Shown here one piece after another: positions 26,698 through 37,297 of a stretch of DNA of 37,297 nt. This DNA is from Flavobacteriales bacterium (GTDB taxonomy: Bacteria > Bacteroidota > Bacteroidia > Flavobacteriales_D > Crocinitomicaceae): the NCBI GenBank assembly GCA_947488235.1, contig CANLAQ010000026.1:1-37297 (forward strand), written 5' to 3'. Each line of letters opens with the position of its first letter. Positions within the stretch are counted from its first letter, which is position 1. The notes beneath the pieces were generated by a model. The model was not told the origin of the DNA. It worked only from the letters and a program-made list of their open reading frames with translations, and did not search any database. The position numbers and the translations under genes are program-made.

Positions 26698-26771
26698 GGC
26701 TCCGTGGCGCAACTGTATAGCGCATCAGATTTCGGCTCTGAGGGTTGGGGGTTAGAATCCCTCCGGGGTCA
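26698..26771 (+). tRNA. tRNA-Arg (anticodon TCG)
   Basis: A complete 74-base cloverleaf. The acceptor stem GGCTCCG/CGGGGTC has two G-T pairs, the D stem is GCGC/GCGC, and the anticodon stem TCAGA/TCTGA carries the loop TTTCGGC (anticodon TCG at 26732-26734). The T stem GGGGG/CCCTC contains one G-T pair, and the discriminator is A. CCA is not encoded. The D-loop AACTGTATA has T instead of G at position 19 (26716), and the T-loop TTAGAAT has A instead of C at position 56 (26754), so the universal G19-C56 tertiary pair would become U19-A56. The gene is followed by a terminator and is the anchor of the accessory region. Confidence 0.9.
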
Positions 26772-26772
26772 C
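26759..26772 (+). repeat. tRNA 3'-end repeat, copy 1 (putative attachment site)
   Basis: CCCTCCGGGGTCAC, the T-stem/acceptor end of tRNA-Arg plus one base. The same 14 bases recur exactly at 34927-34940, and shortened forms ending GGGTCAC occur at 36775-36781 and 37019-37025. Copies of a tRNA 3' end bounding a block of accessory genes are the usual footprint of site-specific integration. Confidence 0.7.
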
Positions 26773-27097: not shown

Positions 27098-29815
27098 ATG
27101 CTAGAATCCGTTTCCAGTTTCCAAAATTTCACCAATTTATTATCTGAAAAGAACAACAAGGAAAAAGGTAATGCTTTTGAGCAATTGGTTTATGCCTATT
27201 TCAAATTAGAACCTAAATATGCATTTTACGATGAAGTTTGGCCGTTTGCGGAGGTGCCGACACTTGTTTTAGAAGAATTGCAATTACCTAGTCAGGACAT
27301 TGGAATTGATTTAATTGCAAAGATGGGTAATGAATATCATGCCATTCAATGTAAGTACCACCAGGACAATTCACAATCGGTCACGTTCAAAGAAGTAGCA
27401 ACGTTCATTTCATTGCTAGAGTCAAATCCTAAAATCACACAAGGATACATTTGTACAACAGCTGATATTACCTCAAGGGTATTTAATAAGCTGAACACAA
27501 AGCCAATTAATCTTTTATTGAACGACACTTGGGCTGAACTGGATGAATTGTTTTTTGCTCGTTCCAAAGCATTCCTTGAGGGTAAAAAGCCTAAAGAGCT
27601 GGTTTCGTTCAAACCAAAAGAACATCAGAAGAAAGCACTAAAAAATGCCAAAAATTATTTCCTAAAGGAAAACAATAGTCGAGGTAAATTGATTTTCCCT
27701 TGTGGGGCTGGAAAGAGTTTGACTGGTTATTGGATGACTACAGAATTGCAAGCGAAAAAAACAATTGTTGCTGTTCCTAGTTTATCTCTTGTCAAACAAA
27801 CCCTAGAAGTTTATCTTCGAGAGGTCGTTGCCTCAAAGCGATCTGTGAAATGGCTTTGCATCTGTTCAGATGAAGGAATTGGTAAAGACGATGACATTGT
27901 ATATTTCACTGAAAACATTGGTGTTCCTTGTCAAACGGATGCACTGTATATTCAGAATTGGTTAGAAGCTAATAAAGACGAGGAAATTTTCATTTTTACT
28001 ACTTATCAGAGTGGACGAATCATTGCCGATATTTCAAAGCAATTGGGAATCACTTTTGATCTTGGGATATTTGATGAAGCGCATAAAACAGTTGGAGCAA
28101 ACAAAAAGCTGTTTAGTCATTTGTTGTTTGAAGAGAACATCTCGATAACCAAGAGAATTTACATGACGGCAACAGAACGCTTTTACAAAGGTTCTAAGGA
28201 TGATATTATTTCGATGGATGACGAAGATATCTATGGGGATACATTCGCTCAAATGAGCTTTAAAGAGGCAATCGAGACAGGATTGCTAACCGATTACAAA
28301 GTGATTACCATAGAAATTCAAAAATCTGAAATTGCCGAGTTTATCCGTGAGAATAATTTGGTTCAGTTAAACGATAAATGGAAGAAAGAAACGGAAGCAA
28401 GGTCAATGGCTTCGATGCTTGCCTTAAGGAAAGCGATGAAAATGTTTCCAATAAAAAACGCCGTTTCCTTTCACTCATCCATTGAAAAAGCTGTTCGAAA
28501 CAAAGAACTTCAACAATACATTACAGACACATACGATTATCAGCCGATTGACACTTTTACTGTTTCAGGTAAGCAAGCCACTTCAAAAAGAAATAGCATC
28601 GTTCAAGAATTCGCTCGCTCGGAACATTCACTGATTACGAATGCACGCTGTTTAACTGAAGGTGTGGATGTTCCAAACATTGATTGCATCATTTTCTCTG
28701 ACCCAAGAAAAAGCAAGGTTGACATTGTTCAAGCCTTGGGACGTGCACTACGTAAAAAAGAAGGAAAGGATTGGGGTTACGTCATTTTACCCATCATTTA
28801 CGACGACACAACTCAAGAAATAGATAACGATAACTTCCAAGAAATACTCTCAATTGTCAGAGGATTAGCGTCCAACGACGAACGAATAGTAGAATTTTTC
28901 AAAGACAAGGAACAAACTAACAACAGAAAAGAAACAAAAGATGGTCAGTTTCATTTAGAAGTCTTTTCGGATTATATGGATGCCTCTGATTTAGCATCCC
29001 AACTCCAAATCAAACTCTGGGAAAAGCTTTCTCGATTTTCATGGATGCCGTTTGAGGAGGCGAGGGAATACGTGAGAAGGTGGGGTTTAAAAAACCAATT
29101 TGAATGGCGTATATTTTCACATTCTAAAAATCGTCCTTTAGATATTCCAGCTAATCCAATGGTTGTATACAGTAGTGAAGGATGGGTAAATATGGGTGAT
29201 TGGTTAGGGACATATAACATTAGAAATTCCGATAAATCCTACAGAAACTTTTCTGAAGCTAGGGAATTTGTGCACACATTGAAATTTCAGAAAGTTGAAG
29301 ACTGGACAAATTATTGTAAGTCGGGAAAAAAACCAATTGATATTCCATCAGTTCCATCAAGGCCCTATAAAAATAATGGCTGGGTAAATTGGGCAGACTG
29401 GTTGGGAAAGAATACTTTTCAAGGTAGTAGTAAAAAACTATCCTATTTAGAAGCCAAGAAAATTGTACAAGAGTTCAATTTGAAAAGCACTAAAGAATGG
29501 GCTAACTTCTGCAAAAGTGGTGATAAACCTACAAATATACCTAATCGACCATCTGCTGTATACAAAGAAAAAGGTTGGAATGGATGGGGAGATTGGTTAG
29601 GCACTAAAACAATTGCACATTTTAACAAGGAATATATTTCATTTAAAGAATTGAAAATTCTTGTCAAAACCAATAAAATTAATACTCAACTACAATGGAA
29701 TGAGTATTATAAATCATTAAAGGATAAAACAAATATTCCATCTAATCCACAAAGAACATATAAGGAGAAAGGATGGATTAATTGGGCAGATTTTCTTGGA
29801 AAATCTGACAAATAA
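27098..29815 (+). CDS. Mrr-like nuclease / DEAH helicase with C-terminal GW-DWLG repeats
   Basis: The 905-residue protein has three parts. Residues about 22-130 form an Mrr-type restriction endonuclease domain with Glu28, Asp71 (GIDLIA) and QCK at 84-86, the D-QxK active site. Residues about 170-600 form a superfamily 2 helicase: Walker A PCGAGKS (201-207), DEAH (326-329), TAT (357-359) and motif VI QALGRALR (545-552). Residues 651-901 hold four repeats of about 55 residues (651-705, 718-771, 782-836, 848-901) with the pattern EA..(Y/F)V..., (E/D)W..(Y/F).KS...., IP..P...Y...GW..W.D(W/F)LG, like the so-called phage-integrase repeat unit, probably a DNA-binding or spacing module. The architecture suits DNA restriction by a translocating nuclease. 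No methyltransferase is adjacent. It is followed 6 bases later by a second nuclease gene. Confidence 0.88.
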   Translation: MLESVSSFQNFTNLLSEKNNKEKGNAFEQLVYAYFKLEPKYAFYDEVWPFAEVPTLVLEELQLPSQDIGIDLIAKMGNEYHAIQCKYHQDNSQSVTFKEVATFISLLESNPKITQGYICTTADITSRVFNKLNTKPINLLLNDTWAELDELFFARSKAFLEGKKPKELVSFKPKEHQKKALKNAKNYFLKENNSRGKLIFPCGAGKSLTGYWMTTELQAKKTIVAVPSLSLVKQTLEVYLREVVASKRSVKWLCICSDEGIGKDDDIVYFTENIGVPCQTDALYIQNWLEANKDEEIFIFTTYQSGRIIADISKQLGITFDLGIFDEAHKTVGANKKLFSHLLFEENISITKRIYMTATERFYKGSKDDIISMDDEDIYGDTFAQMSFKEAIETGLLTDYKVITIEIQKSEIAEFIRENNLVQLNDKWKKETEARSMASMLALRKAMKMFPIKNAVSFHSSIEKAVRNKELQQYITDTYDYQPIDTFTVSGKQATSKRNSIVQEFARSEHSLITNARCLTEGVDVPNIDCIIFSDPRKSKVDIVQALGRALRKKEGKDWGYVILPIIYDDTTQEIDNDNFQEILSIVRGLASNDERIVEFFKDKEQTNNRKETKDGQFHLEVFSDYMDASDLASQLQIKLWEKLSRFSWMPFEEAREYVRRWGLKNQFEWRIFSHSKNRPLDIPANPMVVYSSEGWVNMGDWLGTYNIRNSDKSYRNFSEAREFVHTLKFQKVEDWTNYCKSGKKPIDIPSVPSRPYKNNGWVNWADWLGKNTFQGSSKKLSYLEAKKIVQEFNLKSTKEWANFCKSGDKPTNIPNRPSAVYKEKGWNGWGDWLGTKTIAHFNKEYISFKELKILVKTNKINTQLQWNEYYKSLKDKTNIPSNPQRTYKEKGWINWADFLGKSDK

Positions 29816-29821
29816 TTAGCA

Positions 29822-30520
29822 ATGAATAAACCAAACATAAAGTTTAACGAGGATATTACTCATCAATACACAGCTAAAATTGAGTATTTAACAGTTGAAG
29901 CAGAGGAGACAAAGAATAAATCAAAGTCACTTTATAAATTGAAAGGAGAATTTCACCAAGTGGAAGAGTTTGGTCGATTATTTTTCAAAGAGAATGGATA
30001 CAGTTGTGTTGACGGTGTAGATTTTACACAAGTTTTTTCACATATATCCTTTAATTTTGATTACGATACACAAGTTCATGAAAATTACATTTTAGGAAGT
30101 CAATTGATTGATAAAAAGACTCTTGATGGTGTTTTCAAAACCTTAAGGGGTCTCAGAGATAAAGTATTAAATGAAGATGTGTTTTCGACTCAATTATTTG
30201 AAATAACCCAGCACTTGATTGAATTATACTATTCAACTTTTGAACCCAAAAGAACTCGTCTTTTAAATGTCCTAGAATTCATTAAAACCATTCCAGATAA
30301 GGAACTCATAAAGTTGGTGAAGTTTTATTATCGAATAAGCGGATTGAAGCGAGGAAGTCCAGATTTAGTAATCTATAAAGATGACAAATATTGGCTCGTT
30401 GAGGTCAAATCTTCAAATGACTCGCTTAGTAAATATCAAATTTTCTACTTCAATTACTTTCAAGAAATAGTTGGTGAGAATATTTTTGTTTTAAGCGTGG
30501 TTGATAAAGATTGGTATTGA
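29822..30520 (+). CDS. VRR-NUC-like PD-(D/E)XK nuclease
   Basis: A 232-residue protein whose last 65 residues form a VRR-NUC-type nuclease core: GLKRGSPDLVIYKDDKYWLVEVKSSNDSLSKYQ, shown here by its key positions Gly178, Asp181, Glu194, Lys196 and Gln206. The N-terminal 170 residues are helical and not recognised. VRR-NUC enzymes cut branched or single-stranded-flap DNA and often act with SNF2/DEAH helicases, which fits the helicase gene six bases upstream. The ATG at 29822 is the natural start. It probably shares a transcript with both neighbours. Confidence 0.78.
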   Translation: MNKPNIKFNEDITHQYTAKIEYLTVEAEETKNKSKSLYKLKGEFHQVEEFGRLFFKENGYSCVDGVDFTQVFSHISFNFDYDTQVHENYILGSQLIDKKTLDGVFKTLRGLRDKVLNEDVFSTQLFEITQHLIELYYSTFEPKRTRLLNVLEFIKTIPDKELIKLVKFYYRISGLKRGSPDLVIYKDDKYWLVEVKSSNDSLSKYQIFYFNYFQEIVGENIFVLSVVDKDWY

Positions 30521-30555
30521 AAAAAATAACACGATGTCTCATAGATTAAAAGCTA

Positions 30556-32004
30556 ATGGATTACTATAACGATTATTGTATTGAGAGTCTTGAAAATTTA
30601 GAATCGAAATTGAGTTCAGGTTGTGTAATTAATCAAGATGTAAGAATTCGAGGTGAATTCTCATCACTTGGAAAAGTCATTAAAATAAATGGTCATTTAA
30701 ACATAGATAACGATCATTTAACTGACCTTGGTGAACTCATTTATGTAAAAACTGATTTCTGGTTAAATAACAATTCGAGTAAACTTAAATCTCTTTGTAA
30801 ACTAGAAAGAATAGGTGGTAATTTGTCTTTAAGGTATTCAAATGTTTCAGATCTCGGTAAACTTCAACGTGTTAATGGAAACGTGAACTTAAGAGATACT
30901 TTAATTTCCAATTTAGGAAATTTGAAATATATAGGAGGCAATCTTTACCTTCCTAAAAGATTGGAAGGAATTAGTTTGGAGAATGTTGAAATTAAGGGGG
31001 AAGTTCGTATTTGGAATGATGTCAAAGATTCTAAAATTGAAGTATTAAAACAAATAATAGATTGGAAATTTGATGATTACTTCTCTGATTTGCATTCTAA
31101 AGAAATAGAACTTAAAAAGAAATGCCTTACTGGAGAATATTTAGTGAAAAGATGTTTCACGCTTTCGCAGTATAATCAATATACCATAGAAAACATTCAT
31201 GATTTTATAGATTTTGTGGATCATCATTTAAATAGTTTATATGGTGATAAATTCTCCTTTTACCATGTGCTATTTGACGAATTAAAATTAATCCATCAAA
31301 TAAATAATGAGTTTCCAACTTTTAAGGTTGACAAAAGGCAAGAAAGGTCAGTACAAATTGAAAAAATAAAAAAGTTTTCTGACAATTTTCTAAATGAAAA
31401 TTATAACAAGCCTTTCATATTCAAATATGATAGGATAATTGATGACTATAAAAGTAATCCTAATTGGAACGGAAATAAATCTACTATTTGGTTAAGGTAT
31501 GATGAACACGAATTAGGATATTCTGAATATGGCGGCAGATTTGAATGGGACCCTTACAAAGGACAAAGTATTTTTAGTAATTCTTTTATTTATTTTGTTG
31601 AAAATAAATTACTAGAGATATTTTCAATTCTCATTGACACACTTCAAAATGAATTTAGGATTTCAAGGGGATTGCCAAGGATTGGAGAGGGATGGATTGG
31701 AGAAACCAATTTGTTTTATCAATTGAAGGAAAAATTATTCGGATATGAAATCATTCAACATGGTAGGCCGTTGTGGCTAGGTAGACAGCATTTAGACATT
31801 TGGATTCCTGACTTAAAAATTGGTATTGAGTATCATGGAGCTCAACATGATCGACCAATAGATTTTTTTGGTGGTCAAGAAGCATATGAGAAAAACGTTG
31901 AACGAGACAATAGAAAAAAGGAGCTGTGTTATGATAATGGAGTCAAATTAATAGAAGTAAGGGAGGGGTATGATTTGGATGAAATAATAGCTCAAATTAT
32001 TTAA
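30556..32004 (+). CDS. Leucine-rich-repeat protein with C-terminal Vsr/PD-(D/E)XK-like nuclease domain
   Basis: A 482-residue protein. Residues about 30-150 contain regular solenoid repeats of about 22 residues of the form LG.L..I.G.L.L (SDLGKLQRVNGNVNLRD, SNLGNLKYIGGNLYL). The middle, 160-375, is unrecognised. Residues about 378-482 form a nuclease-like domain with GRQHLDIWIPDLKIGIEYHGAQH (key residues Asp414, Glu425, His427, His431), then RDNRKKELCYDNGVKLIEV, the layout of Vsr-like and related PD-(D/E)XK nucleases. The same core occurs in the next gene. An ATG at 30556 starts it, 35 bases after the VRR-NUC gene. The solenoid may recognise a phage product or partner; this is inference. Confidence 0.75.
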   Translation: MDYYNDYCIESLENLESKLSSGCVINQDVRIRGEFSSLGKVIKINGHLNIDNDHLTDLGELIYVKTDFWLNNNSSKLKSLCKLERIGGNLSLRYSNVSDLGKLQRVNGNVNLRDTLISNLGNLKYIGGNLYLPKRLEGISLENVEIKGEVRIWNDVKDSKIEVLKQIIDWKFDDYFSDLHSKEIELKKKCLTGEYLVKRCFTLSQYNQYTIENIHDFIDFVDHHLNSLYGDKFSFYHVLFDELKLIHQINNEFPTFKVDKRQERSVQIEKIKKFSDNFLNENYNKPFIFKYDRIIDDYKSNPNWNGNKSTIWLRYDEHELGYSEYGGRFEWDPYKGQSIFSNSFIYFVENKLLEIFSILIDTLQNEFRISRGLPRIGEGWIGETNLFYQLKEKLFGYEIIQHGRPLWLGRQHLDIWIPDLKIGIEYHGAQHDRPIDFFGGQEAYEKNVERDNRKKELCYDNGVKLIEVREGYDLDEIIAQII

Positions 32005-32118
32005 GATGTTAATATTTCTACAAACGGTGAATTTAAAGGAAATAACTTATCTTCTGAATAAAAAAAGACAAATACTTTAACAAATATTTTAGCAAGTATA
32101 AAAAAATAGTAGTTGATT

Positions 32119-33792
32119 ATGACAAAATCGTACGATATAAATTATTTCAAAAATCTTGCAGTACAAAAAAATGGTAAGTGTCTATCTATTGCATACCAAA
32201 CATTAAACACAAAACTAAAATGGCAGTGCTCGAAAGGTCATACTTGGGAAAGTGTACCTAACAGCATACTTCGAGGCACTTGGTGCAAAGTTTGCGCTGG
32301 TAAAGCAAAAAAAAACATCCAAGATATGCAGGAATTAGCTGTTGCACGAGGAGGTCAATGCTTGTCTAAGAATTATATTAATGGCAAAACTAAATTAATT
32401 TGGGAATGTGCAAATGGTCATATTTGGGAAGCAAAATATGACAATATTCAACAAGGGAAATGGTGTCCTGATTGTTCGACTGGTTTGAGCGAAAGAATTT
32501 GTCGTACATATTTTGAAGAAGTATTTAAAGTCCCTTTCCCCAATACAAAAGGGATTTCTTGGTTACGTAATGACAAAAGTAATTTCCTTGAACTGGATGG
32601 GTATAATAACATTATTCAACTGGCTTTTGAACATCAAGGCGCTCAACATTATGAAGGTGAAAGTTATTTTGAAAAAGCTAAATATGATGATATCAAATCC
32701 CAATTATGCAAAGAAAATAATGTTCTATTAATTCAAATACCTCAGCTTGGGGTCTTACTACCTCATTCCAAACTACATACTTTTCTAAAAGAAGAATTCA
32801 AGAATACTCGATTTGAGCACTACAAATTACCGCGATTAAAAGATGTAGATTTAAGTAGAGCCTACAGTAATAGGGTAGATCTGGAAATGAAGCGTCTTGC
32901 AGAAGATAAAGGCGGGGAATTTCTATCAAAACATTATTTAGGAAGCACGATAAAGCATGAATGGAAATGCGCAAATGGTCATGTTTGGAACACGACACCT
33001 GCCGCAATTAGATCTGGAAACTGGTGTCAAAAGTGTGGTGTTAGTGATTCATCAGAAAAAAGAAAGGCAGACTTTGACGAAATACTATCAGTTATTCACG
33101 AAAAAGGTGGTCAGTGTTTATCCTCAGAATACATTAATTCAAAAAATAAGTTGAAGATTATATGTCATGAAGGACATACGTGGGAGGCTCTTCAAGCAAG
33201 TTTAAAAAGGGGGCATTGGTGTCCAGCTTGTGCTGGGCAAGAAAAACTAAAAATTGAAAACCTTAAGTTGATAGCAGAATCAAGAGGGGGTAAATGTCTA
33301 AGTGAGAAGTATGTAAATGCTAATGAACTGATGATATGGAGATGTAAGCAGGGCCATGAATGGCAGGCGTCAGCAGGTAGAATCAAGAGCGGAACATGGT
33401 GCCTAAAATGTTCGGGATCAGAAAAATTATCGTTATCGGTATTTCAAGAAATTGCACACGAAAGGAAGGGAAAATGTCTTAGTATTAATTATAAGAACGC
33501 GAATTCTAACTTAGAATTTGAATGTTCTGAAGGTCACAAATGGACGGCAAGGGCAAATCATGTTAAAAGAGGAAGCTGGTGCCGTACATGTCGCATGGCT
33601 GAAGGTACTAAGAAACGCTCTTTAAGTATAAATGACATGAAACAGTTAGCAGAACAATTTAATGGAAAATGCTTATCTACTGAGTATTTTAATAATAAAA
33701 CAAAGTTATCTTGGGAATGTGAGAGTGGACATCTATTTGAAAAAAGCCCAGTTGAAATTAAAAAAGGAAAATGGTGTCCAAAATGTAAATAA
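32119..33792 (+). CDS. Seven zinc-ribbon repeats (DUF4379-like) with an inserted nuclease domain
   Basis: From the ATG at 32119 (a TTG at 32113 is less likely) the product has 557 residues. Seven copies of a zinc-binding unit of about 50 residues occur at 9-59, 70-119, 257-306, 321-371, 381-431, 441-491 and 506-556. Each reads GG.CLS..Y.N...KL.W.C..GH.W.......(K/R).G.WC..C, with four likely ligands (for example C37, H41, C56, C59). This matches the DUF4379 'probable zinc-ribbon' family. Between repeats 2 and 3 (about 120-245) sits a nuclease-like domain with FLELDGYN, FEHQGAQHYEG (Glu171, His176) and DDIKSQLCKENNVLLIQIP, homologous to the end of the preceding gene product. It is likely a DNA- or RNA-binding nuclease. 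It stands 114 bases after the previous gene. Confidence 0.8.
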   Translation: MTKSYDINYFKNLAVQKNGKCLSIAYQTLNTKLKWQCSKGHTWESVPNSILRGTWCKVCAGKAKKNIQDMQELAVARGGQCLSKNYINGKTKLIWECANGHIWEAKYDNIQQGKWCPDCSTGLSERICRTYFEEVFKVPFPNTKGISWLRNDKSNFLELDGYNNIIQLAFEHQGAQHYEGESYFEKAKYDDIKSQLCKENNVLLIQIPQLGVLLPHSKLHTFLKEEFKNTRFEHYKLPRLKDVDLSRAYSNRVDLEMKRLAEDKGGEFLSKHYLGSTIKHEWKCANGHVWNTTPAAIRSGNWCQKCGVSDSSEKRKADFDEILSVIHEKGGQCLSSEYINSKNKLKIICHEGHTWEALQASLKRGHWCPACAGQEKLKIENLKLIAESRGGKCLSEKYVNANELMIWRCKQGHEWQASAGRIKSGTWCLKCSGSEKLSLSVFQEIAHERKGKCLSINYKNANSNLEFECSEGHKWTARANHVKRGSWCRTCRMAEGTKKRSLSINDMKQLAEQFNGKCLSTEYFNNKTKLSWECESGHLFEKSPVEIKKGKWCPKCK

Positions 33793-33956
33793 CGGACATG
33801 AAAAATCTTGTTTGCAACTAATAGATATTAAGTAATCTCGAAAACGGGGAAATTAAAGTAACAGAAATCAAACTAGGAAATTTAAGTTGTAAAATGGACC
33901 TTAATTCTATACATTTTTGCCCGAATATATTATTCTTTATCCGTATACTATTTTAA
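33793..33956. other. Intergenic stretch with a possible coding remnant
   Basis: No complete gene. In the + frame, 43 codons are open from 33825 to the TAA at 33954, including NLENGEIKVTEIKLGNLS, which has the composition of real protein. The frame has no start before 33894, so it may be the relic of a lost gene. The next ATG follows directly at 33957. Confidence 0.3.
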
Positions 33957-34832
33957 ATGAGTACCCCTAAAAACCACCACTTTTTATCAAAGGTTCTAAT
34001 AAAGAAGTTTCTTGATTCTGATGGAAAGTTAAATTACTATAGCAAGTTTGAAGATCGCATTATTAACAAAGAATATAGCAGATTTGATTTTGCAGAGGAT
34101 TTTCTCAATTCGATTGTGGATCATAACGGCTTAATTGATCATAAATCGGTTGAAGACAATCTTAATCAAAATTTTGAACAAGGCTTCAATCGTTATTATG
34201 AATCCTTTTTTAGTGCATTGAAAAAGGAAGATAATGAAATGTTAACTGACTCTATTAAATTCATGATTCGCATGGGTATTATTGGCGACATGAGAACACC
34301 TGAGCATCAAATTGAAACACAGTATGCAATTTTCAACGCTTTTGATAAAATAAGTCATTTAGCAGATTCAAAACTTCAACAAGAGATTGAAGCGTATTAT
34401 AGTCGAGTTTCAGTTATTAAAAATAAATTTCCTGTTGATTATAATGAGATTGCCGAAAAAATTCAGGAATTAATGAGTGATTGTATTTATTCAGTATTTC
34501 TTGCGGATGACAACAATTACTTTTTCCTGCCTGACAATAGCGCTGTAACAATCCGTTCAAAATTGGATTCAGACATAGATTTTAATGGAGAAATATTAGA
34601 AAGTTTGAGTAGACCTATTTCCACAGTGATTTTTCCAATAAATAGCCAAACAATAATTGTTTCACAATCAACAAAAATCTGCCCTCAAAAATCCCATGGA
34701 ATTTATAACCTAAACAGTGAAGCAGTTTTTCAATATAATAAGATGTTTTTAGCAAGTGCAAGAGATAAAGTTATTTGTGCTAAAAACGAATATCTCCAAA
34801 CCTTTATATCTAAGTTAGGCGAAGAAGGATAA
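33957..34832 (+). CDS. DUF4238 family protein
   Basis: A 291-residue protein beginning STPKNHHFLSKVLIKKFLDSDGKLNYYSK. This matches the N-terminal pattern of DUF4238, in which a His-His pair (here HH at 7-8) is followed by an aromatic (L/F)..F......G.L..Y motif. The C-terminal half also fits (NNYFFLPDNSAVTIR, then a long strand-turn STVIFPINSQTIIVSQ). The function of the family is not established; members are common in accessory and defence-rich regions. There is no signal peptide or membrane segment, so it is cytoplasmic. It is the last gene of unit 1, on the same strand as the rest but 164 bases away. Confidence 0.68.
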   Translation: MSTPKNHHFLSKVLIKKFLDSDGKLNYYSKFEDRIINKEYSRFDFAEDFLNSIVDHNGLIDHKSVEDNLNQNFEQGFNRYYESFFSALKKEDNEMLTDSIKFMIRMGIIGDMRTPEHQIETQYAIFNAFDKISHLADSKLQQEIEAYYSRVSVIKNKFPVDYNEIAEKIQELMSDCIYSVFLADDNNYFFLPDNSAVTIRSKLDSDIDFNGEILESLSRPISTVIFPINSQTIIVSQSTKICPQKSHGIYNLNSEAVFQYNKMFLASARDKVICAKNEYLQTFISKLGEEG

Positions 34833-34901
34833 TACGAATATTATCTCTTTTCACTGGATTTTGGCTTACTCTGAAATTTCCATTCAGTCACCCTTTCTAT
34901 G

Positions 34902-34940
34902 TCCCCATAAAAGTTAGATTTTTCGACCCTCCGGGGTCAC
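34902..34940 (+). repeat. tRNA 3'-end repeat, copy 2, with 28-bp arm
   Basis: The 14-base tRNA end (34927-34940) is identical to copy 1. It is preceded by a 28-base arm (34902-34929; starts TCCCCATAAAAGTTAGAT) that recurs at 36744-36771 with one mismatch. The sequence GACCC-TCCG-GGGTC (34925-34938) is also a perfect short inverted repeat. The rest of the 34833-35160 gap holds the terminator at 34951 and no gene I can support. Confidence 0.65.
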
Positions 34941-35214: not shown

Positions 35215-35853
35215 TTGGGCTTTTCAAGACTTATAAAAGATTATACCAATGCGCCAATCTCGAGGCATGTCCTTCTGGAAGTCCTCAGTGGATATAAACG
35301 CCCTAATGACAAAATTAGCGAATTGATCCAAAATGGTGAACTTGTTTCTTTAAGAAGGGGATTGTACGTGCCAGGTCCTGCAACGGGTTTGCCAATACCA
35401 GCATCTTTTCTTATTGCTAATCATCTTCGTGGCCCAAGCTATGTATCATTAGAAGCGGCCTTGTCCTATTGGGGATTCATCCCTGAACGAACGTATGAGA
35501 TAAGTTCTATTACAATTAAAACGACTAAAAAAATCAAGACACCTTTTGGAAGATTTGGATATCAGCATCTTCCTTCACCGTACTATTCATTTGGTATTAG
35601 AAGTGTAGAATTGTCAACAAATCAACTTGTACTTCTGGCTTCGCCTGAAAAGGCAATTTGTGATAAAATCGTACTTACGCCTATGATCAATCTCAGGAGT
35701 ATCAAACAAACCCGTGCCTTTTTATTAGAGGATCTTCGTATGGATGAACAGCTATTGCGGACATTAAATTTGGAAATGATAAGCACTTGGCTAGAAAACG
35801 CTCCGAAAAAAAATAGTTTAAAAATGCTCATCTCAACTATCAAGGAACTATGA
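35215..35853 (+). CDS. abiEi: AbiEi-type antitoxin / transcriptional regulator
   Basis: A 212-residue protein with an N-terminal winged helix-turn-helix (about 15-52: ISRHVLLEVLSGYKRPNDKISELIQNGELVSLRRGLYVPG, key part LIQNGELVSLRRGLYV). The AbiEi core follows (SYVSLEAALSYWGFIPE at about 75-91, and a C-terminal region with SPEKAICDKIV). The family neutralises the AbiEii toxin by a type IV mechanism and represses the operon. The start is TTG at 35215; an ATG is not available near the N-terminus. It overlaps the toxin ATG by 4 bases. A palindromic operator candidate is directly upstream. Confidence 0.85.
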   Translation: MGFSRLIKDYTNAPISRHVLLEVLSGYKRPNDKISELIQNGELVSLRRGLYVPGPATGLPIPASFLIANHLRGPSYVSLEAALSYWGFIPERTYEISSITIKTTKKIKTPFGRFGYQHLPSPYYSFGIRSVELSTNQLVLLASPEKAICDKIVLTPMINLRSIKQTRAFLLEDLRMDEQLLRTLNLEMISTWLENAPKKNSLKMLISTIKEL

Positions 35854-36716
35854 TCAAAGAATGGATTACCGAATATAACCCAAAGAATGAAGAGGAGATT
35901 TTGGATGCACTGCGAGAAATAATGCAGGAGATCACCTTGGCAGCCTTATCGCGAACTGATTTTTTTGAAAAAGCTGCGTTTTATGGCGGGACAGCCCTTC
36001 GAATTTTCTACGGGCTCGATCGGTTTTCTGAAGACCTCGATTTTTCACTTTTGAAAGTTGATGAAGGGTTTACGCTGGAACCTTATTTTTTAGCAATTCA
36101 TACAGAATTCGAATCATTAGGAATAAAAGTAAGCATCAACGAAAAGGAAAAGGCAAAACGTTCTTCAATTGAGTCGGCTTTTTTGAAAACAGAAACAATT
36201 TGGAAAGAATTGGTACTTGAAGATGTTTTAAAACAAACAGGCGTTAAATCTAATAAGCCAATCAAGATAAAAATCGAAGTAGATCGTAAGCCACCATTAG
36301 GTTTTCATACAGAAGAAAAGCTATTGATTCGTCCATTTTCCTTTTATGTGCGGTGTTTTACACTCCCTAGTTTGTTTGCAGGGAAATTGCATGCGCTCCT
36401 CTATCGAAAATGGAAAAATCGAGTTAAGGGTCGTGATTGGTATGACTTTGAGTGGTACATAAAAAAAGGAATTCCGTTGGATGTTGGTCATTTCTTAAGT
36501 AGAGCCAAAGATACTAGAGACTGGGAAGCGGAATTCATCTCTGGAGAAAAGATCATTGAATTATTAAATCACAAAATTGATTCGGTATCCTTTACAAATA
36601 TCAAAGAGGATGTCATTCGATTCATCAAAGACGAAAATGTACTATCTATTTGGAGCGCTAAGTATTTTAAGGATTTAGTTGAAAAGATGAAGTTCGAAAA
36701 TACATCGGCTGATTAA
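35850..36716 (+). CDS. abiEii: AbiEii-type nucleotidyltransferase toxin
   Basis: A 288-residue DNA-polymerase-beta-fold nucleotidyltransferase. The catalytic motif is FYGGTALRIFYGLDRFSEDLDF (about 44-65), with Gly46, Gly47 and Thr48 and the metal-binding pair Asp62 and Asp64. The C-terminal AbiEii signature LFAGKLHALLYRKWKNRVKGRDWYDFEWYI (key residues K..H, GRDWYD) is intact. AbiEii toxins inhibit growth by modifying tRNA 3' ends or related targets, giving abortive phage resistance. It is translationally coupled to abiEi (ATGA overlap at 35850-35853). All key residues are present, so the toxin is probably active. Confidence 0.9.
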   Translation: MIKEWITEYNPKNEEEILDALREIMQEITLAALSRTDFFEKAAFYGGTALRIFYGLDRFSEDLDFSLLKVDEGFTLEPYFLAIHTEFESLGIKVSINEKEKAKRSSIESAFLKTETIWKELVLEDVLKQTGVKSNKPIKIKIEVDRKPPLGFHTEEKLLIRPFSFYVRCFTLPSLFAGKLHALLYRKWKNRVKGRDWYDFEWYIKKGIPLDVGHFLSRAKDTRDWEAEFISGEKIIELLNHKIDSVSFTNIKEDVIRFIKDENVLSIWSAKYFKDLVEKMKFENTSAD

Positions 36717-36743
36717 TCAACCCAACCCATCACTCCCTCCAAA

Positions 36744-36781
36744 TCCCCATAAAAGTTAGATTTATCGACCCCTAGGGTCAC
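36744..36781 (+). repeat. tRNA 3'-end repeat, copy 3, with 28-bp arm
   Basis: The arm 36744-36771 equals 34902-34929 except for one T-to-A change. The tRNA-like part is eroded to GACCC-CTA-GGGTC followed by AC, keeping GGGTCAC at 36775-36781. The inverted repeat GACCC/GGGTC is preserved although the middle has changed. Confidence 0.6.
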
Positions 36782-36787
36782 AAAAGG

Positions 36788-36816
36788 AAACCCTGATGGT
36801 TGCATCAGGGTTTTTT
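36788..36816 (+). terminator. Rho-independent terminator after tRNA-end copy 3
   Basis: The arms AAACCCTGATG (36788-36798) and CATCAGGGTTT (36803-36813) form a perfect stem with loop GTTG and a T-run to 36816. It probably also ends the abiE transcript. Confidence 0.9.
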
Positions 36817-36828
36817 GTGTTTAATGTG

Positions 36829-37014
36829 GCACCAATTTATTGGTGTGAACAAATAAAAACAAAAAACACAGGCTTGCGCAGCAAGGCTAGGGTTTCTATG
36901 TTTGGATTGAACCAATTTATTGGAAAACGCGTCAGCGTAATCCCGTAAATCGTTTTATGTGTCACCAATTTATTGGGGTGAACAAATCCTTGGAAACATG
37001 CGCAGTATAATCCA
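36829..37014. repeat. Structured repeats R2 and R3 and triple CCAATTTATTGG, right island edge
   Basis: This is most of the 458-base gene-free stretch 36717-37174. CCAAT-TT-ATTGG occurs at 36832-36843, 36912-36923 and 36965-36976. R2 (36865-36944) matches R1 at the left edge, with hairpins CTTGC-GCA-GCAAG (36873-36885) and ACGC-GTCA-GCGT (36927-36938). R3 (36980-37013) matches the end of R1, with ATGC-GCA-GTAT (36998-37008). I see no gene here. Confidence 0.6.
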
Positions 37015-37018
37015 ACTT

Positions 37019-37025
37019 GGGTCAC
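37019..37025 (+). repeat. tRNA 3'-end repeat, copy 4 (short)
   Basis: GGGTCAC followed by AAAAG, as in copy 3 (GGGTCACAAAAG), and then by a terminator. Only these 12 bases are shared, and the 28-base arm is missing, so this copy is the weakest. It marks the likely right edge of the accessory region. Confidence 0.4.
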
Positions 37026-37174: not shown

Positions 37175-37297
37175 ATGGTGTTTGAAGAAAAAATGGAGGT
37201 AATCAAGTCCGTTGAGCCTTTTGTGGAGCAATTCATCGAAGAGAAGATGAATATTCCTCAAGAATGTTGGCAGCCCAGTGATTTTTTGCCTGATTTT
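37175..37297 (+). CDS. Acyl-ACP desaturase, N-terminal part (continues past window)
   Basis: The ATG at 37175 opens a frame of 41 codons to the window end, reading MVFEEKMEVIKSVEPFVEQF, then EEKMNIPQECWQPSDFLPDF. The motif CWQPSDFLPD is typical of the start of soluble acyl-ACP (stearoyl-ACP type) desaturases, di-iron enzymes that introduce a double bond into ACP-bound fatty acids. The catalytic ExxH motifs lie beyond the window, so the call rests on the N-terminus only. It marks the return to core genome after the accessory region. Confidence 0.72.
   Translation, partial: MVFEEKMEVIKSVEPFVEQFIEEKMNIPQECWQPSDFLPDF

What the first reader, a model, noticed from the sequence alone, without database searches (positions are those of the whole stretch)
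27098..34832. Candidate undescribed defence system: helicase-nuclease plus three more nuclease-type proteins and DUF4238
Five same-strand genes, the first three tightly spaced (6 and 35 bases): an Mrr-like nuclease fused to a DEAH helicase and GW-DWLG repeats, a VRR-NUC-like nuclease, an LRR nuclease, a zinc-ribbon nuclease, and DUF4238. No methyltransferase, integrase or replication gene is present, so this is neither a normal restriction-modification system nor a phage replication module. The mix of one translocase, several nucleases and two different solenoid/ribbon recognition modules resembles multi-gene anti-phage systems, but I do not recognise the combination as a named one.
Basis: partly seen in the sequence, partly recalled or inferred. 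Interest (0 to 1): 0.75.

Follow-up and report, generated by a model that had tools for sequence, protein, structure and literature searches.

The report
Nuclease-helicase with exchangeable repeat array
The five genes do not recur together as one defence system but look like mixed cargo beside a tRNA gene; the first belongs to a family of DNA-cutting motor proteins whose engine stays nearly constant while a tandem-repeat tail looks swapped wholesale between close relatives, as if to change what the enzyme recognises.

Summary
The five genes are real and mostly as described, but the set was not found elsewhere. A scan returned 55 loci for gene A (Mrr nuclease + SF2 motor + GW-DWLG repeats); no ORF there matched B, C or E, and one matched D, in a locus that also holds a 40-residue C remnant. 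B had no convincing relative in any collection searched.

The interesting object is A. It matches the nuclease-motor half of Type ISP restriction enzymes (LlaBIII), but 4-12 tandem repeats replace the methyltransferase/recognition half. Among 29 pairs with cores at least 80% identical, inner array units are about 42% identical in register and 40% out of register. One pair keeps core and last unit but has unrelated units between. I read the array as a swapped specificity module. Homologous repeats in GmtZ, beside a recombinase, favour DNA recognition. Defence activity and DNA binding are inferred, not tested.

The parts
26698..26772 (+). tRNA-Arg (UCG); its 3' end CCCTCCGGGGTCAC (26759-26772) is the left boundary of the island
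   Evidence: ARAGORN; sequence
27098..29815 (+). Gene A, 905 aa: Mrr-type nuclease + SF2 helicase-like motor + 4 GW-DWLG repeats; Type ISP-like without methyltransferase/TRD
29039..29812 (+). GW-DWLG array of A (residues 648-905), four units of 63-66 residues; PF14882-like
29822..30520 (+). Gene B, 232 aa, VRR-NUC-type nuclease, no convincing relative in the collections searched
30556..32004 (+). Gene C, 482 aa, weak LRR-like N-terminal part + C-terminal nuclease-type domain (IGIEYHGAQH)
32113..33792 (+). Gene D, 559 aa, treble-clef (DUF4379/CapR) repeats with an internal nuclease-type stretch (LAFEHQGAQH)
33957..34832 (+). Gene E, 291 aa, DUF4238
   Evidence: a protein of this domain was tested in PMC9122126 (passage)
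34888..34940 (+). Right boundary of unit 1: 42-nt repeat, then exact 14-nt copy of the tRNA-Arg 3' end (34927-34940)
35215..35853 (+). AbiEi antitoxin (unit 2)
   Evidence: PADLOC AbiEi 1.9e-75
35850..36716 (+). AbiEii toxin (unit 2)
   Evidence: Pfam 1e-31; PADLOC 3e-118
36730..36781 (+). Right boundary of unit 2: 42-nt repeat, then GACCCCTAGGGTCAC (a looser copy); from 36775 on the sequence continues as in cargo-free relative G188
37019..37025 (+). Further GGGTCAC, possibly the end of a gene-less unit
37176..37297 (+). 5' end of a gene (acyl-ACP desaturase, my naming from the sequence, no family scan) that follows the tRNA-Arg in G188 and G600

Best explanation
Genes A-E are cargo of one unit inserted at the 3' end of a tRNA-Arg gene, followed by a second unit carrying AbiE; they are not a functional five-gene system. 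The working object is A: a single-protein nuclease-translocase in which the Mrr nuclease, SF2 motor and following helical region of a Type ISP restriction enzyme are joined to a tandem array of GW-DWLG repeats instead of a methyltransferase and TRD. Inferred mechanism: the array recognises a feature of invading DNA (most likely sequence, read in a modular way), the motor then translocates along the DNA, and the nuclease cuts on stalling or collision, as in LlaGI/LlaBIII. Specificity is renewed by replacing the array wholesale while the core is kept. Shown here: domain content, homology to LlaBIII, absence of the set elsewhere, array-core decoupling, island boundaries. Inferred: defence role, DNA as target, cutting mechanism, and how self DNA is spared without a linked methyltransferase.
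For: LlaBIII 4xqk is the top PDB match by profile (1.6e-106 over positions 10-613) and by Foldseek of the A model (1.3e-36; model pLDDT 81.3). Absence of the set: 55 loci, one D-like ORF, none like B, C or E. Repeat number 4-12 in 31 of 40 database homologues. 29 pairs with core identity >=80%: inner units in register 42.7% counted from the N-terminal end and 40.1% from the C-terminal end, out of register 40.0% (41.8, 40.0 and 39.9 without the exception L062/L067); class means stay between 40.1 and 43.4% from cores of 90-98% down to 40-50% (pairs share proteins and are not independent). L054/L091: core DNA 94.6%, about 800 unalignable bases inside A, then 88% from the last unit on; last unit 98%, inner units 37%. 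Window gene against G194: core 78%, last unit 73%, the units before it 44, 39, 35%. Six of the eight repeat-less relatives align to their C-terminus (tail). Repeats homologous to those of VPA1269/GmtZ proteins beside recombinase GmtY (E 1.8e-81). Island edges.
Against: No phage or DNA-binding experiment. The array model is confident (pLDDT 92.1) but has no PDB match, so DNA binding rests on context. L062/L067 keep colinear arrays (68%, core 85%). Around L054/L091 only the upstream flank is colinear (82.8%); the downstream block is inverted (78-82%). In most other high-core pairs the last unit is as different as the inner ones (30-55%), so a conserved last unit is not the rule. The A scan needed two short core peptides, and many loci end near A: 29 of 54 have 5 kb or more downstream. 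A Type ISP enzyme needs methylation to spare its host; none is linked here, although the genome has two strong N6_Mtase matches on other contigs.
Confidence: 0.6

Rival explanations
1. The array senses a phage protein or another macromolecule rather than DNA sequence, as repeat arrays of STAND-type sensors do; ligand binding releases the motor-nuclease.
For: STAND NTPases with C-terminal repeats, whose effector can be an Mrr_cat nuclease, are described in PMC9122126 (passage). No structural match ties the repeat to DNA binding.
Against: The same repeats occur in VPA1269/GmtZ next to GmtY recombinase genes and in free-standing ORFs near genes annotated as terminus site-binding proteins on five plasmids, both DNA-transaction settings; the motor is of the Type ISP kind, whose missing half is a DNA-recognition module.
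Confidence: 0.25
2. The five genes form one undescribed multi-gene anti-phage system.
For: Same strand, short gaps A-B-C; all lie in one tRNA-bounded unit; G194, same genus, has A, a 40-residue C remnant and a D-like gene in that order; in G024 a D-like gene lies about 4 kb from a Type ISP-like gene.
Against: No other of 55 loci repeats the set; B has no convincing relative; in G083, A and C relatives are on different contigs; G194 keeps A with C truncated and no B.
Confidence: 0.06
3. A belongs to the mobility machinery of an element: the array picks an integration or homing site, as GmtZ may do in gamma-mobile-trio elements.
For: Shared repeat with VPA1269/GmtZ; a tRNA gene at the island edge in the window and a tRNA-Lys near the D-like gene in G194.
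Against: No recombinase among the seven island proteins; the nuclease-motor core matches a restriction enzyme. Neighbours of the other A genes were compared only with the window's proteins, not scanned for recombinases.
Confidence: 0.1
4. A is a chromosomal DNA-repair helicase (RadD/XPB-like) unrelated to defence.
For: Weaker matches to RadD and XPB.
Against: The match of nuclease plus motor to LlaBIII is far stronger; A-specific matches occur in about nine of 200 family genomes, several of them fragments; decoupled arrays are unlike housekeeping.
Confidence: 0.04

Closest known systems
Type ISP restriction-modification enzymes (LlaGI, LlaBIII)
   Same: Mrr-family nuclease followed by SF2 helicase-like ATPase in one chain; best sequence and structure match
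   Different: No methyltransferase and no TRD; a tandem GW-DWLG array stands there instead; 905 residues against 1,578 for the LlaBIII chain
VPA1269 family / GmtZ of gamma-mobile-trio elements
   Same: Two such proteins carry eight homologous GW-DWLG repeats each
   Different: No recombinase found in the island; their repeats lie at the N-terminus and the gene stands between GmtY and GmtX (the name GmtZ is recalled, the records say VPA1269 family)
DUF4238 single-gene anti-phage protein (Rousset et al. 2022, PMC9122126)
   Same: Gene E has the domain
   Different: Relation to the tested protein was not measured; E was not found near A elsewhere
AbiE (type IV) toxin-antitoxin
   Same: AbiEi/AbiEii at 35215-36716, strong model hits

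Membership tests
Type ISP restriction-modification enzyme | Single chain with Mrr-family nuclease and SF2 helicase-like ATPase | tested here: met
   features as stated in the abstract of PMC4666363
Type ISP restriction-modification enzyme | Methyltransferase domain and TRD in the same chain | tested here: not met
   Four GW-DWLG repeats fill residues 648-905; no methyltransferase domain found, PADLOC REase_MTase models match only over residues 9-606
Type ISP restriction-modification enzyme | ATP-driven translocation and cleavage between head-to-head sites | not testable with these tools
   needs biochemistry
Multi-gene anti-phage system | Conserved gene set recurring in unrelated genomes | tested here: not met
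   within contig limits stated in the report
Multi-gene anti-phage system | Proteins match PADLOC models of one system | tested here: not met
   A: partial RM-type and PbeA hits; B, C, D none; E only Cas11a at 0.03. AbiE pair matches its own models
Gamma-mobile-trio element | GmtY recombinase, VPA1269/GmtZ and GmtX together | tested here: inconclusive
   No recombinase hit in seven island proteins; no dedicated GmtY or GmtX comparison was run
DUF4238 single-gene defence | DUF4238 domain over most of the protein | tested here: met
   PF14022 over residues 6-274 of 291, E 6.8e-13
DUF4238 single-gene defence | Protection against phage | not testable with these tools
   experiment needed
AbiE toxin-antitoxin | Adjacent AbiEi antitoxin and AbiEii nucleotidyltransferase genes | tested here: met
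   overlapping ORFs

The most novel reading that the evidence does not exclude
The GW-DWLG repeat is a modular DNA-reading unit: each ~62-residue unit contributes to recognition of a long site, and bacteria reprogram a methyltransferase-free restriction motor by exchanging whole arrays, while the same units steer the recombinase partner GmtZ of gamma-mobile-trio elements to its target. This would be a bacterial, naturally reshuffled counterpart of TALE-like recognition.
Probability: 0.25. Interest if true: 0.9.

Novelty: new variant of a known kind. Interest (0 to 1): 0.6.

Why it matters
If the array sets specificity, this is a restriction-like enzyme without a linked methyltransferase that changes target by swapping a block of repeats, seen between genes with 90-98% identical cores. 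It gives a ready test set (same core, different arrays) for whether the repeat reads DNA and by what rule, and it links a defence-type nuclease to a component of a mobile element family. It also shows that short gaps between genes in an island need not mean one system.

Tried and rejected
Five-gene system: rejected on co-occurrence. Conserved A-B pair: no convincing B relative in the scans (the contig scans depend on short peptide patterns). Of 44 A loci with a complete 3' end, 11 have a same-strand ORF of 90 aa or more within 60 bp downstream; by eye these are mostly unlike one another (L054 and L091 share theirs), and one has weak NucS_C similarity below the curated cut-off. Viral carriage: nine viral-contig loci match the helicase part at 26-34% identity. 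Plasmid matches to A cover at best 66% of it at 30-32% identity, several annotated type ISP; two phage records are similar (65%, 30%), the other listed ones cover 42-46% at 23-25%. Array alone in phages: four records, all large phages. Repeat fold: no PDB match by sequence, Foldseek or VIA. Dispersed-repeat caveat: sequence just after the tRNA (repeats D2, D6, D14) also follows tRNA-Arg in other genus members and recurs in L026 and L135; I did not use it as a boundary. With up to 3 mismatches the 14-base tRNA end is found only at the tRNA and after E, so the ends at 36781 and 37025 are looser. In one search the flanking-gene query was translated in the wrong frame; I rely instead. Papers: passages of PMC9122126, PMC10855318, PMC12629846, PMC8078820, PMC12715929, abstract and passages of PMC4666363, abstract and section list of PMC4872093; the rest only in search listings. 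The gamma-mobile-trio paper (10.1038/s41564-024-01840-5) is not held; I know it from one citing passage and recall. Not in print, as far as ten searches of this library show: no listing on a restriction motor with GW repeats; most subscription papers are absent. Rows dropped: one search left out A proteins under 700 aa and five loci (L047, L051, L052, L053, L057) that duplicate family-genome copies; searches used 36 proteins with complete C-termini and cores of at least 400 aa. The printed neighbour table was cut; the count rests.
Full report
WHAT IS THERE. Family scans give A = Mrr_cat_2 + ResIII + Helicase_C, B = VRR_NUC, D = treble-clef repeats (DUF4379, CapR) with endonuclease PHROGs, E = DUF4238. 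C ends in a nuclease-type domain by PHROG matches; its leucine-rich part is weakly supported. Downstream lies an AbiEi/AbiEii pair that the finding does not mention, and just upstream a tRNA-Arg gene. The window is a whole contig of a 2.45-Mb, 100-contig genome, 89% complete.

THE ISLAND. The 14 bases at the tRNA-Arg 3' end recur exactly after gene E (34927-34940); 100 shuffles gave no exact match. A looser copy follows AbiEii (GACCCCTAGGGTCAC, to 36781), and GGGTCAC recurs at 37019; neither is within 3 mismatches of the 14-mer. The first two copies are preceded by a 42-nt repeat, 83% alike. Each copy is followed by a terminator-like hairpin, judged by eye. In the same genus, G188 has the same tRNA (77 of 77 bases), then about 165 bp, then sequence 93.9% identical to window 36775-36987, starting at the GGGTCAC, and a flanking gene start 94.6% identical. 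G600 also has the tRNA followed by that flanking gene without cargo. G100 is 90% identical to the window up to 26932, just past the tRNA, and then differs. So about 10 kb, A-E and AbiE, occupy a site that is nearly empty in two relatives: unit 1 carries A-E, unit 2 AbiE. None of the seven island proteins scanned is an integrase. Gene-less spacers between two tRNA-end copies (copies 173, 173 and 154 bp apart in L130, L135 and L136) suggest repeated use of this tRNA end.

NOT A FIVE-GENE SYSTEM. In 200 genomes of the family 74 match A at E <= 0.001, but most of these are weak helicase hits; A-specific matches are in about nine genomes besides the window's own (G101 at two places, G194, G058, G117, and partial ones in G083, G111, G066, G132, G081). 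In the stretches fetched for them, ORFs like B or E were absent, and a D-like gene adjoins A only in G194; a further D-like gene lies about 4 kb from a Type ISP-like gene in G024. A scan of the species-genome collection gave 55 loci, partly overlapping these; 54 have an A ORF. No ORF in any of the 55 matched B, C or E, and one (G194 again, L051) matched D. Limits: 22 of 55 loci exceed 20 kb and 29 of 54 have at least 5 kb downstream of A. In G194 the order is A, a C fragment of about 40 residues, then the D-like gene (30% identity), so A persists with C truncated and B absent. B found no convincing relative in 395 genomes of the class (own genome plus two weak VRR-domain hits), the species scan, viral contigs, plasmids or phages. 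C has one full-length relative in 200 family genomes (55%, G083; 6 of 200 match at E <= 1e-8, own included); it lies on another contig than the A fragment of G083, about 2.8 kb from a tyrosine-integrase ORF beside a tRNA-Met, and its 5' side ends at the contig edge. D-like sequence occurs in 52 plasmid records, 159 places, where repeats of one gene may count more than once.

GENE A. The profile of 39 A proteins matches LlaBIII (E 1.6e-106) and LlaGI (2.9e-79) among PDB sequences. The AlphaFold2 model (pLDDT 81.3) has LlaBIII as best Foldseek match (1.3e-36). Type ISP enzymes are single chains of Mrr nuclease, SF2 ATPase, coupler, methyltransferase and recognition domain (abstract of PMC4666363); A keeps the first parts and has a repeat array in place of the last two. 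D71, Q84, K86 and K206 are at least 90% conserved and D326, E327, H329 invariant in the 39.

THE ARRAY. A unit model finds 4 units in the window's A and 4-12 in 31 of 40 database relatives; eight have none and one, cut by its contig end, shows one. In all, 257 units from 40 proteins, fragments included, were compared. The consensus is roughly [YF]-x-x-F-E-E-A-R, L-x-L-K-S-x-x-E-W, I-P-x-x-P-x-x-x-Y-K-x-x-G-W-x-G-W-x-D-[WF]-L-G; the most variable positions are 20, 42, 34, 41, 25 and 10. Pfam PF14882 matches the window's array just under its cut-off (26.1 of 26.5 bits) and the L050 array above it (40.9).

ARRAY-CORE DECOUPLING. Among 36 proteins with complete C-termini, 29 pairs have core identity of at least 80%. 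Their inner units are 42.7% identical in register from the N-terminal end, 40.1% in register from the C-terminal end and 40.0% out of register (41.8, 40.0 and 39.9 without one exception, L062/L067, whose arrays are colinear at 68%). Class means lie between 40.1 and 43.4% from cores of 90% or more (6 pairs) down to 40-50% (105 pairs); pairs share proteins, so these are not independent. The clearest pair, L054/L091, has a colinear upstream flank (82.8% DNA), core DNA 94.6% up to L054 base 11919, no alignment for about 800 bases, and 88% from 12717 through the last unit and a little beyond; the block further downstream is inverted (78-82%). The last units are 98% identical, the inner ones 37%, with 6 and 5 units. 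The window's A against G194 shows the same shape: core 78%, last unit 73%, the units before it 44, 39 and 35%. In most other close pairs the last unit differs as much as the rest, so how far the exchange reaches varies. Point mutation does not easily explain a near-constant core (and, in two pairs, last unit) next to unrelated units; replacement by recombination does. In six of the eight repeat-less relatives (five titled Prochlorococcus, one SAR116) the C-terminal part stays alignable, so the variability goes with the array.

WHAT THE ARRAY MAY READ. Searching the array alone found 37 plasmid records, some annotated VPA1269 family, and four large-phage records. In three plasmids these VPA1269 genes lie between GmtY recombinase and GmtX genes, that is, gamma-mobile-trio elements. 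The unit model finds eight repeats in each of two such proteins (E 1.8e-81 and 3.1e-67) and none in the neighbouring GmtY. In five other plasmids the match is a free-standing ORF of 195-301 aa just downstream of a gene annotated as terminus site-binding protein and near a traG-like gene. These settings favour DNA recognition, but the array model (pLDDT 92.1) has no PDB match and no binding was tested.

MECHANISM AND STATUS. Most likely: array recognition, motor translocation and nuclease cutting as in Type ISP enzymes, with targets changed by array exchange. Shown: domain content, homology, absence of the gene set elsewhere, decoupling, island edges. Inferred: defence, DNA as target, cutting. 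Self-protection is open: no methyltransferase is linked, though the genome has two strong N6_Mtase matches on other contigs (PF01555 gave only sub-threshold matches). A is not filed as a Type ISP member because the methyltransferase/TRD test fails; it may still work like one. Gene E is a plausible separate defence gene, since a DUF4238 protein gave resistance to T7 in the passage read.

CHANGES AFTER RECHECK. Corrected against the calls: the downstream block at L054/L091 is inverted; the last unit is not conserved in most pairs; G083 contigs limit the A/C statement; the G024 D-like gene is now told.

Noticed in passing
window 26759-26772, 34927-34940, 36767-36781, 37019-37025; L135 9602-9781; L136; L130: tRNA-Arg(UCG) hotspot in the genus: short gene-less stretches between copies of the tRNA 3' end, each followed by a terminator-like hairpin (by eye); cargo units without an integrase in the window.
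   Followed up: partly
L112/L136 just upstream of tRNA-Arg: Two truncated copies of the tRNA 5' part in tandem before the intact tRNA, which a simple 3'-end integration does not explain.
   Followed up: no
L134 9221-9247: Same unit-end sequence (GTTAGATTTTTCGACCC...GGGTCAC) in G163 about 1.1 kb from a treble-clef D-like gene, with no tRNA found in the stretch.
   Followed up: partly
L144, L145, L146: GW-DWLG repeats of A are homologous to repeats at the N-terminus of VPA1269-family proteins beside GmtY.
   Followed up: partly
L147-L151: Free-standing GW-repeat ORFs of 195-301 aa downstream of genes annotated as DNA replication terminus site-binding protein on Vibrio, Shewanella and Photobacterium plasmids.
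   Followed up: no
LR745208.1, AP018399.1, OP883945.1, OP752703.1: GW-DWLG-like repeats also occur in four phage records of 320-485 kb.
   Followed up: no
L042 13286-14245; L068 3' of A: Some A genes have a tightly linked downstream ORF (11 of 44 loci): weak NucS_C similarity in L042, an HNH-like motif by eye in L068.
   Followed up: partly
L026 10270-10394: Remnant of gene C (first ~40 codons) directly after A in G194, followed by a D-like gene.
   Followed up: yes
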